From: Planctomycetaceae bacterium
GTDB taxonomy: Bacteria > Planctomycetota > Planctomycetia > Planctomycetales > Planctomycetaceae
Reading direction: 5' to 3'
Length of the DNA: 64,000 nucleotides
Assembly (NCBI GenBank): GCA_019636285.1
Contig: JAHBXV010000006.1
Location: forward strand, 62,001 to 126,000
In this document: positions 15,413-52,167 of the stretch, piece by piece
Position numbering within the stretch: the first letter of the stretch is position 1
Layout of the letters: every line of letters begins with the position of its first letter
Notes under the pieces: generated by a model
Databases searched by the model: none
The model's input: the letters and a program-made list of their open reading frames with translations, nothing else
Told to the model about the DNA's origin: nothing
Position numbers and translations under genes: made by a program

Positions 15413-16876
15413 TTACCGGGACGTCGCGACGGTCGGAGATGGGTTCGCGGTCGTGGTTGATGGTCCCTCGAAGGGCATGGCCATCACGTAGTTGACCAGA
15501 TGCCAGATTTCTTCGTCGGTCAAACCCGTTCCCCCAAAGGCGGGCATCGGCGTTCCCTTGATCCCCGCATAGAGGCGACGGAAGACATCGATCGGCCGGC
15601 GCCCTCCTCGATACTGGCCGCGAGTCAGATCGCGCGGGGGGACCAGGTGGCCCCATTCATCATGCAGTCCCCGTTCCGGATAGGTTTCGGACGAACCGGT
15701 AATGGCCCAGAAGTCTTCCGTGGCCGGGCCGTCCCCTTTTCCCGTGGAACCGTGGCACGTGTAACATTTCGTCTTCTGCGACAGGTAAAGCACGCGACCT
15801 TTCTCGCGCGATTCCGGTGTGTCGGCGACGCGGGCGATCGATGGCGTGATGATATTGTCGGTTGCGTCGGCCCTCTCCCACGGCCCAGCCATCAGGTCGC
15901 CTGCGTCCACGAACACGAACTCCAGGTCTTCCGCCATGCCTCGAAAGTCTTCTTCCGCACGGGTGGCCAGCTCGTCGGCGGTCGGTGGACGTTCCGCGTC
16001 CGGATCGTTTTTCACCGCCGCCTCGTATTCCAGCCGCGCATTCTTACCCTGCTCGGCAATCGCGGTCCGCGAGAAATCCTTCAGCTCGTCATTCAGCCGC
16101 TTCTCGAATTCTCCTCGCATGGAAAGCCAGCGGACATATTCAATCACCGCCGTCATTTCCTCGGGGGCCATCAGCAGGAATGACGGCATGTAGGTTCCGG
16201 GGATCCCATCGCGAATCGTTCGAGCCAGGTCGTCGCGCGAAACACGCTCGCCCGGCCGGGTCGACGTGAATTTCATGACGCCGCGGCGAAAGTCGCGCGG
16301 CAGAGGATTGAGATAACGGGCCGTCGGTCCGGCTCCATCCCCGGCGACGCCGTGGCAGTGCATGCAGTTCTTGAGATAGGACCGACGTCCATCGAGCAGT
16401 CGATTTCCCGGATTGAGCACGAACTCATCTCCGACATCCGGCACGGGATCGAGCCGCTGAGCCATGAGAACGGTTGATTCCGTTTCACCCGCGACAATCG
16501 AAGCCACTCCATCGGGCTCCGCTTCGTCCACCCGCGCGCCGGACTTCCACAGAAGTTGACGTGCCGATGCCGGGGCCGTGGTTCCCTCGCCCCGTTTCAC
16601 CGTCAGCTTCGTGCCGCCACCCTCAACCGTCTCGACCGCGGTCACCGTCCCCGCGAAACCTCCATACTCGACGGGCAGCCGCTCCCAGGCCACGAGCTCA
16701 TTCGGCGTCCCGAAATTCTGCAAGACCGCCCGCTTCACCCAGGCATTCGCCATCGGAGTCAGATCGTCTGTTTCCTTACTCCACGAAAAGCGGGCCTTTG
16801 GCGCGTCTCCGCAGCCACACAGCAGCAGACTCAGGCCGAGACTGACGAGCGAAACAGTACGTCGGTTGGAAGTCAT
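15413..16876 (-). CDS. Diheme cytochrome c lipoprotein of the oxidase operon
   Basis: 487 residues from the ATG at 16876. A short hydrophobic leader ends in LLLCGCG, a lipobox-like motif. Two class I heme sites are visible: CMHCH near residue 172 with Met ligand candidate MPSF, and CYTCH near residue 370 with MPAFG. The link between them is charged and helical. Immediately upstream of coxB on the same strand, it is most simply the membrane-anchored electron donor to the CuA site, replacing a fused caa3-type domain. Substrate-side partner (bc complex or alternative complex III) is not encoded in the window. Confidence 0.88.
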   Translation of the reverse strand: MTSNRRTVSLVSLGLSLLLCGCGDAPKARFSWSKETDDLTPMANAWVKRAVLQNFGTPNELVAWERLPVEYGGFAGTVTAVETVEGGGTKLTVKRGEGTTAPASARQLLWKSGARVDEAEPDGVASIVAGETESTVLMAQRLDPVPDVGDEFVLNPGNRLLDGRRSYLKNCMHCHGVAGDGAGPTARYLNPLPRDFRRGVMKFTSTRPGERVSRDDLARTIRDGIPGTYMPSFLLMAPEEMTAVIEYVRWLSMRGEFEKRLNDELKDFSRTAIAEQGKNARLEYEAAVKNDPDAERPPTADELATRAEEDFRGMAEDLEFVFVDAGDLMAGPWERADATDNIITPSIARVADTPESREKGRVLYLSQKTKCYTCHGSTGKGDGPATEDFWAITGSSETYPERGLHDEWGHLVPPRDLTRGQYRGGRRPIDVFRRLYAGIKGTPMPAFGGTGLTDEEIWHLVNYVMAMPFEGPSTTTANPSPTVATSR

Positions 16877-37191: not shown

Positions 37192-39072
37192 TCACACAAT
37201 AATCGACGACTTCGATTTCGCGAGGTCTTCCAGCAGCGACTGCATCAGCTTCGCGGTCTCTTCCGGACGGCTGACAAGGCCGTCCTGGAGTTCGGCCGTG
37301 GCGTAAAGCTGACGGGCTGTCTGGCGGATGAAGTCGTCGTTCTCCGGGTTCGCGGAGAGATCGCACAATCGGCCAATCAACGCGGCGTGTGGGTTGATCT
37401 CCAGAATCCGCTTCGGCGGCTGGAAGTCCTTCTGGTTCTGGCGCAGCACCTTCTGCAACTGGCTGCTCAAGGAGCCTTCCGGATTGATCAGACAGCATGG
37501 GCTGTCGGTCAGGCGGTCCGATTGCCGGACGTCGCCGACACGCTCGTCGAGGCTGCCGCGAAAGAGTTCGACGACACGCTGGAAGTTCTTCGGCAGTTCG
37601 CGCGTTTCCATCGCGGCAGCGTCGGTACTGGCGGGGAACTTCACGTCGGACGAGTCGATCGAGACCAGGTCCTTGTCAGCGTATTTGTCCAGGCGAGTCA
37701 GCGCGAATTCATCGACCGGGTCGGTCAGGTACAGGACTTCCAGGTTCCGCTTGCGGAATGGTTCGAGGAGCGGATGGGCGGCAATGGACGTCAGGTCGGC
37801 TCCGCTGAGGTAATAAATCTGCTCCTGCCCCTCGGCTGCGCGTTGGAGGTAATCGTCCAGCGTGGTGATCGCGTCTCGGTCGTCGCCATGCGAACTGTGG
37901 AACCGCATCAGCTTGGCGATCCGCTCGCGATTGTCGTAATCCTCGGCGATGCCGGTCCGCAGGATGGGGCCGAACTCGCTGTAGAACGTCCGGTAGTCGT
38001 CCGGCTTCTCGGTCGCGAGGTCGGCGAGGAAGTCGAGTGTCTTCTTCGTCAGCACCTTCTTGAGCTTCGGGATCAGCTTATGGTCCTGCAGCGTCTCGCG
38101 CGAGACGTTCAGCGGCAGATCGGCGGAATCGACGACGCCGTAGAGGAAGTGCAGATAGTCGGGCAGCAGATCCTGGTTGTCGTCCTGCACCAGAATCCGC
38201 TTCGCGCACAGATTCAGGCCATGGTCGACCCGGCCGAAGCCCAACAGTTCATAGTTCTTCGGCGGGCAGTACAGGATCGCATGAAATTGGAGCGGCGAAT
38301 CGCTCGACAGGTGCAGATGCCACAGCGGCTTCTCCGTCGAGCCATGCTTGAGCCATTGGAAGAACTCGACGTATTGCTCTTCGGTGACCTGCGACTTCGG
38401 TTCCACCCAGATTGGCCGCTGCTCGTTGAGCTGTTCCCCTTCCAGATGAATGGGGTGGGGAATGAACGTGCTGTACTTGCGGACGATCGACTTCAGCCGG
38501 AACGGCTCAAGGAACTCTTCCTGGTCGGCCTTCAGGTGCAGGCGAATCTGCGCGCCACGGGGAACCTCTCCTTCCACGGCTTCAATCGTGAACTGGCCGC
38601 TGCCGTCGGACTCCCACCGCCAGCCTGTGTTCTCGCGGTAACTGCGGGTCACGACCTCCACTTTGTCGGCCAGCATGAACGCCGAGTAGAAGCCAACGCC
38701 GAACTGCCCGATCAGTTCGAGGGCGTTTTTCGAGTCGCCCTGCAACTGGTTCAGAAACTCCTTCGATCCGCTACGGGCAATCGTCCCCAGGTTCTGGATC
38801 AGGTCGTCGTGCGTCATGCCGATCCCCGTATCGCGGATCGTCAGCACCTTGGCCTCTTTATCGGGCTCCAGCACGATCTCCAGGTCGGCTCCGCCCCGCG
38901 CCTGCTCATCGGTGAGCTGGACGTGGCGCAGCTTGTTGAGGGCATCCGAGGCATTCGAGAGCAACTCGCGGAGCGCGATCTCGCGGTTCTGATAGAGCGA
39001 ATGCGAGAGGATGTTGAGAAGCTGTTTGATCTCGGCCTGAAACGTGAATTGCTCGGGGGTGGTCGTCGACAT
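37192..39072 (-). CDS. htpG: Molecular chaperone HtpG (Hsp90)
   Basis: 626 residues, the normal bacterial Hsp90 length. GHKL ATPase motifs: RELLSNASDALNKLR near residues 35-50, IRDTGIGMTHDDL near 78-90 and the lid IGQFGVGFYSAFML near 118-131. The middle-domain arginine region is LPLNVSRETLQ. ATP-driven folding chaperone, often heat induced. ATG 39072 has GAGG eight bases upstream. A structured repeat element lies 28-101 bases upstream, probably within its leader. Confidence 0.96.
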   Translation of the reverse strand: MSTTTPEQFTFQAEIKQLLNILSHSLYQNREIALRELLSNASDALNKLRHVQLTDEQARGGADLEIVLEPDKEAKVLTIRDTGIGMTHDDLIQNLGTIARSGSKEFLNQLQGDSKNALELIGQFGVGFYSAFMLADKVEVVTRSYRENTGWRWESDGSGQFTIEAVEGEVPRGAQIRLHLKADQEEFLEPFRLKSIVRKYSTFIPHPIHLEGEQLNEQRPIWVEPKSQVTEEQYVEFFQWLKHGSTEKPLWHLHLSSDSPLQFHAILYCPPKNYELLGFGRVDHGLNLCAKRILVQDDNQDLLPDYLHFLYGVVDSADLPLNVSRETLQDHKLIPKLKKVLTKKTLDFLADLATEKPDDYRTFYSEFGPILRTGIAEDYDNRERIAKLMRFHSSHGDDRDAITTLDDYLQRAAEGQEQIYYLSGADLTSIAAHPLLEPFRKRNLEVLYLTDPVDEFALTRLDKYADKDLVSIDSSDVKFPASTDAAAMETRELPKNFQRVVELFRGSLDERVGDVRQSDRLTDSPCCLINPEGSLSSQLQKVLRQNQKDFQPPKRILEINPHAALIGRLCDLSANPENDDFIRQTARQLYATAELQDGLVSRPEETAKLMQSLLEDLAKSKSSIIV

Positions 39073-39099
39073 CGGCAATCCTCGGGTTGATAAGAGTCC

Positions 39100-39173
39100 C
39101 TAACACAACCGGTTGTGCCTGTCAGAAACCGTGCAAAAACAGGCAACACCACATTGCACAGAGGTTGTGTTAG
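39100..39173. repeat. Structured ~75 bp element, copy A (upstream of htpG)
   Basis: Outer stem CTAACACAACC / GGTTGTGTTAG (11 bp, perfect); inner stem TGCCTG / CAGGCA; the left side also contains the palindrome ACAACCGGTTGT. Copy B at 51072-51147 shares about 80 percent of positions, the inner stem and CATTGCAC exactly. Confidence 0.75.
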
Positions 39174-39443
39174 AATTGGAAAAATAGTGAACAAAGATGG
39201 TCCGCCGGCCGTCCCGCGTCTTTGAACCGGGCGAAGGCGATTGGCACGCATTTTTCATGGGTAAAAGTAGAGCAACCCGAATGCCGTTGATAGTCAGTAA
39301 TCACAAGTCTCTTTAGTGAATGAAGTTGTGGATTCTTGTTCGGAATGGGCGATGTCGCGACTGCTGCCAGAATGGCATAAGGACTGCCAACTTGGCGATC
39401 CAACAAAAGTGGCAGCTGCAGCGTAGTTCCCAGTGATCGTTAA

Positions 39444-51020: not shown

Positions 51021-51071
51021 CCCCTTGCCCACGGCCCGCGAGATCACTGCGAACAAGACAGCAAAGAACCC

Positions 51072-51147
51072 CTGACACAACCGGTTGTGCCTGTCGGAAA
51101 CCTGCGAAAATCCAGGCAAACGGCTCATTGCACGGAAGTTGTGTCGG
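51072..51147. repeat. Structured ~75 bp element, copy B (upstream of the HhH-GPD-like gene)
   Basis: Outer stem CTGACACAACC / AGTTGTGTCGG with one terminal mismatch and one wobble; inner stem TGCCTG / CAGGCA. Compared with copy A (39100-39173) the third outer pair changes from A-T to G-C on both sides. Ends 21 bases before the ATG at 51169. Confidence 0.75.
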
Positions 51148-51168
51148 GAAATCCAACAGAGAGAGCGT

Positions 51169-52167
51169 ATGGCAGCCGCAGCACGAACCAAGTCGTCCGA
51201 TCGGGCGGGCGTGATCAAGAAGCTCCTTCCGCTGGCCAAGAAGCACTACAAGGTCGCGCTGCCGCCCACCGACCTTCCCGTGGTGGAGACGATGCTGTTC
51301 TCGGTGTGTCTCGAGAACTCTTCGGTCGAGGCGGCACGGGCCGCGTATGACCGGCTCTTCGCCGTATACCCCGATCTGAACGAGGCCCGCGTCAGTTCCA
51401 TCACCGAACTGCAAGATGTCTTCAGCTCGCTGTCCGATTCGGACTGGCGGGCGTTTCGCTGTCGCCGCGTCCTGCAATACGTCTTCGACCGGTCCTTCGC
51501 CTTCGAGATGGAATCTCTTCGCAAGAAGACGCTCGAACTGGGCGTCAAGCAACTGGCGAAGATCAAGCAACTGACTCCGTTCGTCCGCGCGTACACCCTG
51601 CACGTGGCGATTGGGGCCCATCTGGTTCCGCTGGACGACAGCTCGCGCGGGTTCTTGTCGTGGCTGGGCCTGGTTCCCCGCGAAGGCTCCCTCGAAGAGG
51701 CCGGAGAGTCGCTCAAGTCGCTCGTGCGGAAGTCCGAAGCCGAAACATTTTGCGCGAGCATCCGGTGCCTGGCTGTTGATCCCAATCTCGCGCCGGCGTT
51801 CACCGAGGACGCAGCCAAAACCGATTCCTCCGCTGGAGACGCGGCGTCCGCGATCGAGCGGCTCGAACAACTGATGAAAATCGGCGCCGAGAAATATCTC
51901 GCCCAGGCGGCCAAGGCCGCGGCTGCCGCCGAGGAGAAAGTCGCCAAGGCCGCCAAGCCCGCGAAAAAGGTGGTCAAGGCGGCTGAGGACAAGGCAGCTC
52001 CCAAGACCAAGGCGGCTCCCAAGAAGGCGGCCCCGGCGAGTGCCGACGACAAGAAAAAGGCCACCAAGCCCCCCCCGAAGCCAGCGAAGGCCGAGAAAGC
52101 CGCGAAGCCGGCTCCGGCCAAGAAGAAAGCGGCCCCCAAGAAGCCGGCCCGCTCGACTAAGTCTTGA
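51169..52167 (+). CDS. Endonuclease III-like (HhH-GPD) protein with histone H1-like tail
   Basis: 332 residues from ATG 51169, which follows AGAGAGAG. Residues of about 15-185 follow the endonuclease III layout (LPVVETMLFSVCLENSSVEAARAAYDRLF; IKQLTPFVRAYTLHVAIGAHLVPLDDSSRGFLSWLGLV). The catalytic Lys of the LPGVGRKTA hairpin is not present (PFVRAYT instead), the aspartate position may be kept as D156/D157, and the FeS cysteines are absent. Residues of about 240-332 are Lys/Ala/Pro repeats like histone H1. Probably a DNA-binding, non-catalytic relative. Confidence 0.7.
   Translation: MAAAARTKSSDRAGVIKKLLPLAKKHYKVALPPTDLPVVETMLFSVCLENSSVEAARAAYDRLFAVYPDLNEARVSSITELQDVFSSLSDSDWRAFRCRRVLQYVFDRSFAFEMESLRKKTLELGVKQLAKIKQLTPFVRAYTLHVAIGAHLVPLDDSSRGFLSWLGLVPREGSLEEAGESLKSLVRKSEAETFCASIRCLAVDPNLAPAFTEDAAKTDSSAGDAASAIERLEQLMKIGAEKYLAQAAKAAAAAEEKVAKAAKPAKKVVKAAEDKAAPKTKAAPKKAAPASADDKKKATKPPPKPAKAEKAAKPAPAKKKAAPKKPARSTKS

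What the first reader, a model, noticed from the sequence alone, without database searches (positions are those of the whole stretch)
39100..39173. Two-copy ~75 bp structured element with a compensatory base-pair change
Copies at 39100-39173 and 51072-51147 share about 80 percent of positions. Both can form an outer stem built on ACACAACC, an inner TGCCTG / CAGGCA stem and keep CATTGCAC in the linker. In the outer stem the third pair is A-T in one copy and G-C in the other, with both partners changed, and the second pair moves from T-A to T-G. Such changes suggest selection for structure. The copies lie just upstream of htpG and of a DNA-binding HhH-GPD-like gene. It may be a new RNA motif or a palindromic mobile repeat.
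Basis: partly seen in the sequence, partly recalled or inferred. Interest (0 to 1): 0.72.

Follow-up and report, generated by a model that had tools for sequence, protein, structure and literature searches.

The report
Family of tiny IS5-type jumping repeats
The two look-alike hairpins are members of a family of about a hundred short, gene-less jumping repeats in this planctomycete genome; their ends resemble those of ordinary IS5-type transposons, but a folded core is kept even in relatives whose ends resemble a different IS5 element.

Summary
In detail: two copies, 82% identical over 77 aligned columns, with the stated stem changes. They are not a two-copy RNA. The element is about 88 bp and at least 93 dispersed copies were cut out of this genome. 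It is best read as a MITE moved by IS5-family transposases: 17-bp inverted repeats starting GAA/GAG; a TNA target duplication (of 26 copies with TNA on both sides 21 carry the same N, 9.7 expected); two orthologous sites without it; a relative inserted in a copy between CAAG repeats. An IS5 element of another family of the class has nearly the same left end, GAGACCCTAACACAACC (16 of 17; right end 14) and a TAA duplication. None with such ends was found in the window genome.

A similar core (GGTTGTGS…CANCAGAGG) was read in ten other genera of the family, mostly with different but still paired ends. Pairing inside the core, beyond the ends, also covaries between lineages. So changes in the outer stem need no RNA; those in the core suggest that folding matters. 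No sense preference beside genes and no Rfam match speak against a plain cis-regulatory RNA. Why the core is kept is open.

The parts
39094..39179 (+). MITE copy 1 (subfamily A), terminal inverted repeats included; 21 bp upstream of the htpG start as called (htpG on the - strand, 37192-39072). Right outer end eroded; no intact target duplication (TAA left, AAA right)
   Evidence: (R2 match, 75.3 bits)
39094..39110 (+). left terminal inverted repeat GAGTCCCTAACACAACC
   Evidence: family consensus compared with IS5 ends
39111..39162 (+). folded core of copy 1 (GGTTGTGCC ... CAGGC ... TTGCACAGA)
39163..39179 (+). right inverted repeat GGTTGTGTTAG plus eroded outer 6 bp
51066..51153 (+). MITE copy 2 (subfamily A), 45 bp after the rbfA stop codon (51020) and 15 bp before the start of the ORF called at 51169; no intact target duplication (AAA left, CAA right)
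   Evidence: (62.0 bits)
51066..51082 (+). left terminal inverted repeat GAACCCCTGACACAACC
51083..51136 (+). folded core of copy 2
51137..51153 (+). right inverted repeat AGTTGTGTCGG plus outer 6 bp GAAATC

Best explanation
[quoted passage not shown] It codes for nothing. It is most likely moved in trans by an IS5-family transposase (NCBIfam IS5_3, DUF4096 + DDE domain) that recognises those ends. Insertions survive between genes, often with the duplicated TNA forming the stop codon of the neighbouring gene. The outer stem is simply the two ends pairing, and its compensatory changes follow from both ends having to suit the same transposase. Between the ends is an asymmetric folded core that stays while the ends differ between lineages and resemble different IS5 elements. 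Shown here: copy number, target duplication, two orthologous sites without the element, a nested insertion, IS5 elements with near-identical ends, covariation in outer stem and core. Inferred: that an IS5 transposase acts in trans, and that the core is kept because its folding matters for movement or for the host's tolerance.
For: Copies: 109 left boxes, control 2; 93 full elements in G000; 1 of 93 inside a called gene. TNA duplication: in 26 copies with TNA on both sides 21 have the same N, 9.7 expected; identical 3-mers 25 of 93, 8.7 expected; p at most 5e-5 each. Stop-codon overlap in 29 of 108 elements of two genomes, 18.0 expected if even over the TNA sites of the same gap. Sites without the element: both elements of G115:C53. 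Nested insertion: 86-bp relative inside a copy in L112 with CAAG on both sides; taking it out restores a normal copy. IS5 ends: G252 TAA|GAGACCCTAACACAACC (window family 16 of 17; its other end 14), G229 (sister genus, 16 and 16), G126 TTA|GAACCTATCCGAAAACC (G110 repeats 16), the window genome's IS5 at C59 (G018 repeats 15, right end), G119 (subfamily B 16 and 16). Transposases of L368, L188 and L291 pass the NF033580 IS5_3 cut-off in at least one frame. Covariation.
Against: No IS5 element with window-type ends was found in the window's own genome: its 3 DUF4096 and 3 DDE_Tnp_1 matches (4 places) have no CTAACANAACC within 1 mismatch nearby. The IS5 elements that fit mostly lie in other genomes than the repeats; the one same-genome pair read (C59 IS5 and subfamily C) agrees at only 13 of 17. 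IS5 elements with quite other ends also sit in element-bearing genomes (L187, L189, L361, L363). Neither window copy keeps a target duplication. In G115 alone the duplication is not significant (7 of 22, 4.8 expected). The orthologous empty sites have drifted and are not base-exact. The core is not explained by IS5 descent; some IS5 ends share only its first bases (GGTT in L368, CCTCT in L375 and L421).
Confidence: 0.88

Rival explanations
1. A functional structured RNA (cis-regulatory element or small RNA) that happens to be repeated: the core is transcribed and its fold is what selection keeps.
For: Core stem next to the ends covaries between 13 lineages (own pairs 4.92 of 5, swapped 4.40, permutation p 0.0003). 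The inner 13-pair hairpin of the sister genus has both-sided changes in 7 pairs and is 97.5% paired; its interior was not part of the search pattern. G-T mismatches outnumber A-C in inner stems (sister genus 20 to 3; window family stem 2 16 to 3, stem 3 38 to 22), not in the window-type outer stem (14 to 20); outer stem of the broad set 10 to 4.
Against: No preferred sense relative to same-strand neighbours (23 with, 36 against, p 0.12); found among convergent (17), divergent (16) and same-strand (59) gene pairs; no Rfam match. The excess of G-T rests on few independent events.
Confidence: 0.15
2. REP/REPIN-like repeats moved by a RAYT (Y1 transposase).
For: Palindromic, dispersed, intergenic; the genome has 9 Y1_Tnp matches, 8 over the curated cut-off.
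Against: None of the 30 Y1 loci fetched (of 39 matches in four genomes) has an element within the fetched flanks; a TNA duplication is not a RAYT trait (recalled); the ends resemble IS5 ends.
Confidence: 0.03
3. Dispersed integron attC-like sites.
For: Size, imperfect palindrome, AAC/GTT in the stem, unpaired internal loop (seen by eye; attC traits recalled).
Against: Dispersed, apart from a few tandem pairs; flanking TNA duplications; IS5-like ends. The GTTRRRY box was compared from memory only and does not fit.
Confidence: 0.02
4. Neutral origin of the compensatory changes: repair or replication errors inside palindromes copy one arm onto the other, so covariation needs no selection. (It concerns the covariation and is compatible with the MITE reading.)
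For: Known for quasi-palindromes (recalled); would act on any long inverted repeat.
Against: It should also erase the interruptions, but the GGT/GA internal loop is kept through the 39-row alignment (25 of those rows were picked with boxes that include it) and an unpaired base in stem 2, mostly T, is seen in most lineages other than those with CTAACAMAACC ends.
Confidence: 0.2

Closest known systems
MITEs derived from IS5-family insertion sequences (IS1031/IS427-type, NCBIfam NF033580 IS5_3)
   Same: Ends GAR..., TNA or TA duplication, no gene, intergenic, many copies, ends nearly identical to IS5 elements of the class. A three-base target is given as a common feature of the IS1031 group in PMC2516522, and 2-bp duplications for most, and two overlapping frames for some, IS427-group elements in PMC3281130 (passages seen).
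   Different: A similar core occurs in elements whose ends resemble different IS5 elements, so it is not just an internally deleted copy of one IS.
Other prokaryotic MITEs with hairpin transcripts (review PMC10969869, passages seen)
   Same: Small, hairpin-forming, intergenic.
   Different: Asymmetric core with lineage-to-lineage covariation; planctomycete host (the term 'Planctomyc' does not occur in that review).
REPs of planctomycetes (PMC3733652, passages seen)
   Same: Dispersed palindromes in the same phylum.
   Different: Longer, other ends, target duplication, no RAYT found beside them in 30 loci.

Membership tests
IS5-family MITE | terminal inverted repeats like those of an IS5-family IS | tested here: met
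   window family 16 of 17 with the left and 14 with the right end of the G252 IS; four other repeat types 15-16 of 17 with four other IS5 elements, subfamily C only 13
IS5-family MITE | short target duplication of the same type as the IS (TNA) | tested here: met
   G000: 21 of 26 same N, p at most 5e-5; IS L415 TAA, L368 TTA. G115 alone not significant
IS5-family MITE | no transposase gene inside, small size, many copies | tested here: met
   about 88 bp, 93 full copies
IS5-family MITE | mobility (sites with and without) | tested here: met
   two sites of the sister genus, drifted; nested insertion of subfamily B
IS5-family MITE | source IS present in the same genome (usual, not strictly defining) | tested here: not met
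   no window-type ends at the DUF4096 and DDE_Tnp_1 places of G000; the C59 IS5 resembles subfamily C, not A
IS5-family MITE | transposition in trans by the IS5 transposase | not testable with these tools
   needs a mobility assay
Structured RNA family (Rfam sense) | match to a curated family | tested here: not met
   none at gathering score in the window; no match at the elements in five related loci up to E 5
Structured RNA family (Rfam sense) | covarying base pairs | tested here: met
   outer-stem counts favoured by how rows were chosen
Structured RNA family (Rfam sense) | transcription | not testable with these tools
   no expression data
REP/RAYT | repeats flank a Y1 (RAYT) gene | tested here: not met
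   0 of 30 fetched Y1 loci, of 39 matches
attC site | cassette array beside an integron integrase | not tested
   copies are dispersed; integrase not searched

The most novel reading that the evidence does not exclude
The conserved asymmetric hairpin core is a functional folded nucleic acid (RNA or single-stranded DNA) that persists as a passenger in the Planctomycetaceae while its ends are repeatedly replaced to match whichever IS5 transposase is available, so that one element family has used several different sets of ends.
Probability: 0.25. Interest if true: 0.68.

Novelty: new variant of a known kind. Interest (0 to 1): 0.42.

Why it matters
It explains about a hundred intergenic hairpins of this genome, and many in related genera, as one mobile family, and warns that compensatory base-pair changes in a terminal inverted repeat are not by themselves evidence for RNA. 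It also gives a case in which both ends of a miniature transposon differ in concert between lineages around a kept, covarying core, which can be tested directly with a two-plasmid mobility assay.

Tried and rejected
RAYT link: 30 of 39 Y1_Tnp matches looked at, none beside an element. IS5 partner with window-type ends in the window genome and genus g30: not found. K-turn reading of the internal loop: considered by eye, rejected because the left strand lacks the GA. attC reading: rejected by dispersal and target duplications; integrase not searched. Rfam: nothing.

Rows dropped or mended. The first alignment of the sister genus (A2) had three rows in the wrong orientation (L052, L060, L049); A3 replaces it and leaves out L146 (31 of 32 rows). 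Of 40 loci fetched for R1 matches in other genera, 35 gave a row (L338 a poor one); G070 gave none and G064 was not read. In one search, 84 of 93 window-type copies could be placed.

The seven non-planctomycete hits of the 18-base left end among 84,980 genomes are near the roughly 15 that I reckon chance gives (no tool estimate). One is an IS5 element in a Hyphomonadaceae MAG (L291). It suggested the IS5 link, but its GGTTGTG was selected by the pattern and is not used as evidence for the core.

Papers: the listings showed nothing on these repeats (one search listed 15 of 1,213, 8 of 1,091, 12 of 21); the library holds open-licence PMC papers only.

Full report
What is there. Both copies are as described. 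Over 39100-39173 and 51072-51147 they agree at 63 of 77 columns. The window alone hides the main point. A 72-base query finds 42 places at E below 0.01 in the 6.37-Mb genome (40 of 101 candidates scored), and the left box TRACACAACCGGTTGTGCNYG with up to 3 mismatches finds 109 places against 2 for the reversed pattern. From the stretches fetched plus the window, 93 distinct full elements were cut out. Mean pairwise identity is 75%; 8 of 93 copies have a nearest neighbour at 95% or more, against 10 of 22 in G115, so most window-type copies look old.

Boundaries and target duplication. Outside the element both sides favour TNA. In 93 copies the flanking 3-mers are identical in 25 (8.7 expected by shuffling partners); among 26 copies with TNA on both sides 21 have the same middle base (9.7 expected); p at most 5e-5 for both. 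Base by base, the strongest link between the two flanks is exactly that middle base (47 of 74, 29.5 expected). The match is direct, not complementary, so it is a target duplication and not more stem. In the sister genus (G115, 22 copies) the same test is not significant (7, 4.8 expected). Neither window copy keeps its duplication.

Where it sits. With a simple codon-usage gene caller of my own, 1 of 93 copies lies inside a called gene; 17 are between convergent, 16 between divergent and 59 between same-strand genes. In 29 of 108 intergenic elements of both genomes the element edge lies within one base of a stop codon, so that the duplicated TNA overlaps it, against 18.0 expected if sites were used evenly over the TNA triplets of the same gap (no formal test). 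TAA and TGA are TNA triplets, so such an insertion rebuilds the stop codon. Element sense relative to same-strand neighbours is 23 with and 36 against (p 0.12), so no orientation rule is visible.

Mobility. Two elements of G115:C53 were compared with genomes of the same genus. At site 2, G029 and G114 have the flanking genes without the element. At site 1, G029 has both flanks without it; G114 could be read on the right side only. The surrounding intergenic DNA has drifted, so the sites are not base-exact, but the TTAGAATGTC edge of site 1 is kept in G114 and nearly so in G029. A sharper case is in the window genome itself: in L112 a copy is interrupted by an 86-bp relative (subfamily B) flanked by CAAG on both sides; removing the insert and one CAAG restores a normal copy.

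Relatives. The exact 18-base left end occurs, among 84,980 genomes, in three planctomycete MAGs (Planctomicrobium piriforme LH-05nov19-189, Planctomycetaceae RYN_439 and D1_Bin_8) and in seven scattered genomes; records of the window genome may be left out there. A covariance model from 74 copies (R1) matched 16 of 170 genomes of the family at E up to 0.01, in 11 of 58 genera (at most 26 candidates scored per genome; some matches weak and not read). Read out, elements of ten other genera share the inner boxes AACCGGTTGTGS...CANCAGAGG, with exceptions, but mostly have other outer stems: TCCGAAAACC (G110), TTTCAAAACCC (G018, G023, G175), CCGACAAAACC (G123); G119 has CTAACACAACC like the window and the sister genus CTAACAAAACC. 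Ten loci outside the family, one per genome, were read: by eye 7 of 10 have the same TNA on both sides of GAR ends, nine give matches of only 80-82 bases with flanks, and the four whose alignments to R2 were shown lack the core. In the window genome R2 also finds subfamilies B (TCCGTCAAAACCC) and C (TTTCAAAACCC).

The IS5 link. Seeing GAR ends and TNA, I looked for IS5 elements. G126 has an intact one (transposase 275 aa, NF033580 IS5_3, 231 bits, cut-off 110) with ends TTA|GAACCTATCCGAAAACC, one base from the G110 repeats. The window genome has one at C59 with GAGGCGGTTTCAAAACY ends and a TA duplication, in two overlapping frames, resembling the repeats of G018. A search of 397 class genomes with the transposase part of L291 matched 139. 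Of 30 loci whose ends were read, 12 have CTAACA in at least one end, among them G252 TAA|GAGACCCTAACACAACC (other end GAGACTCTAACACAACT), G229 TTA|GAAGCMCTAACAAAACY, G162 TAA|GAACGCCTAACAAAACC and G053 TAA|GAAACTCTAACAAAACC; several of the 30 gave no convincing ends. These transposases were not scanned against families one by one. Compared as 17-mers, five of six repeat types have their best match at 15 or 16 of 17, each with a different IS5 element; subfamily C reaches 13, tied between two (for C59 only the right end was used). Against this: no IS5 with window-type ends was found in the window genome, most fitting pairs come from different genomes, and IS5 elements with other ends sit in element-bearing genomes (L187, L189, L361, L363). 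A three-base target as a common feature of the IS1031 group is stated in PMC2516522 (passages seen).

Structure. Inner CCTG/CAGG stem: both-sided changes at 2 of 6 pairs, 6 cells. Sister genus, 31 rows: the inner 13-pair hairpin is 97.5% paired with both-sided changes at 7 pairs. Across 39 rows chosen from the window genus and other genera of the family the outer stem is 98.1% paired with both-sided changes at 9 of 11 pairs; stem 2, written with one fixed bulge, is 75.9% paired there. Cautions: copies in A1 were cut out by similarity to both arms, and the 25 rows of A4 outside the window genus and g30 were chosen with at least 7 of 9 outer pairs formed, so outer-stem percentages are inflated; the interior of the sister-genus hairpin was not selected for. 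Stem 2 was then tested, allowing one unpaired base, by swapping partners between 13 lineages: own 4.92 of 5 pairs, swapped 4.40, p 0.0003 (lineages are related, so p is optimistic; the sister genus is the weakest at 4 of 5). Changes seen there are TGTGC/GCATCA, TGTGG/CCATCA, TGGCG/CGTCCA and, in one sequence each, TGCGG/CCGTCA and TGTAC/GTACA.

Reading. The outer stem is the pair of transposon ends; its compensatory changes need only that both ends suit one transposase. The core is different: the IS5 ends read lack it as a whole, though a few share its first bases (GGTT in L368, CCTCT in L375 and L421); it is kept over changed ends, and its pairing covaries while interruptions persist. That is a constraint on folding of one strand or of a cruciform, unless arm-to-arm copying explains it; what it serves is unknown. 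I think a role in movement or in tolerance of the palindrome is likelier than a host RNA, because sense and gene arrangement are not constrained.

Noticed in passing
L093:1639-1738 and 15543-15642, L223:2097-2197, L124:4988-5087, L112:2885-2984, L109:2604-2705, L131:880-979, L240:1896-1995: Subfamily B in the window genome: same layout, ends TCCGTCAAAACCC, perhaps a 4-bp target (CAAG in L112; CAAGG on both sides in L223, by eye); ends like those of an IS5 element in G119.
   Followed up: partly
L118:578-677, L084:3992-4090, L241:801-900: Subfamily C in the window genome, ends TTTCAAAACCC, resembling at 13 of 17 the ends of the genome's own IS5 element at C59 (L188).
   Followed up: partly
beside copies in L005, L012, L084, L100, L101: A further palindromic repeat, GTGCCACTGGC..GCCAGTG, lies next to several elements; possibly a REP.
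   Followed up: no
L083, L090, L104, L132 (about 90 bp apart): Tandem pairs of elements, one right next to another.
   Followed up: no
G045, G201, G216, G250, G310 and others outside the family (L394, L395, L397-L404): Mostly shorter repeats with GAR ends and, in 7 of 10 read by eye, TNA on both sides; no core in the four whose alignment to R2 was shown.
   Followed up: partly
window 51169-52167: ORF with an alanine/lysine-rich tail and no Pfam match; its called start lies 15 bp after copy 2.
   Followed up: partly
L291:2901-3751: IS5-family element in a Hyphomonadaceae MAG, TTA duplication, transposase in two overlapping frames.
   Followed up: yes
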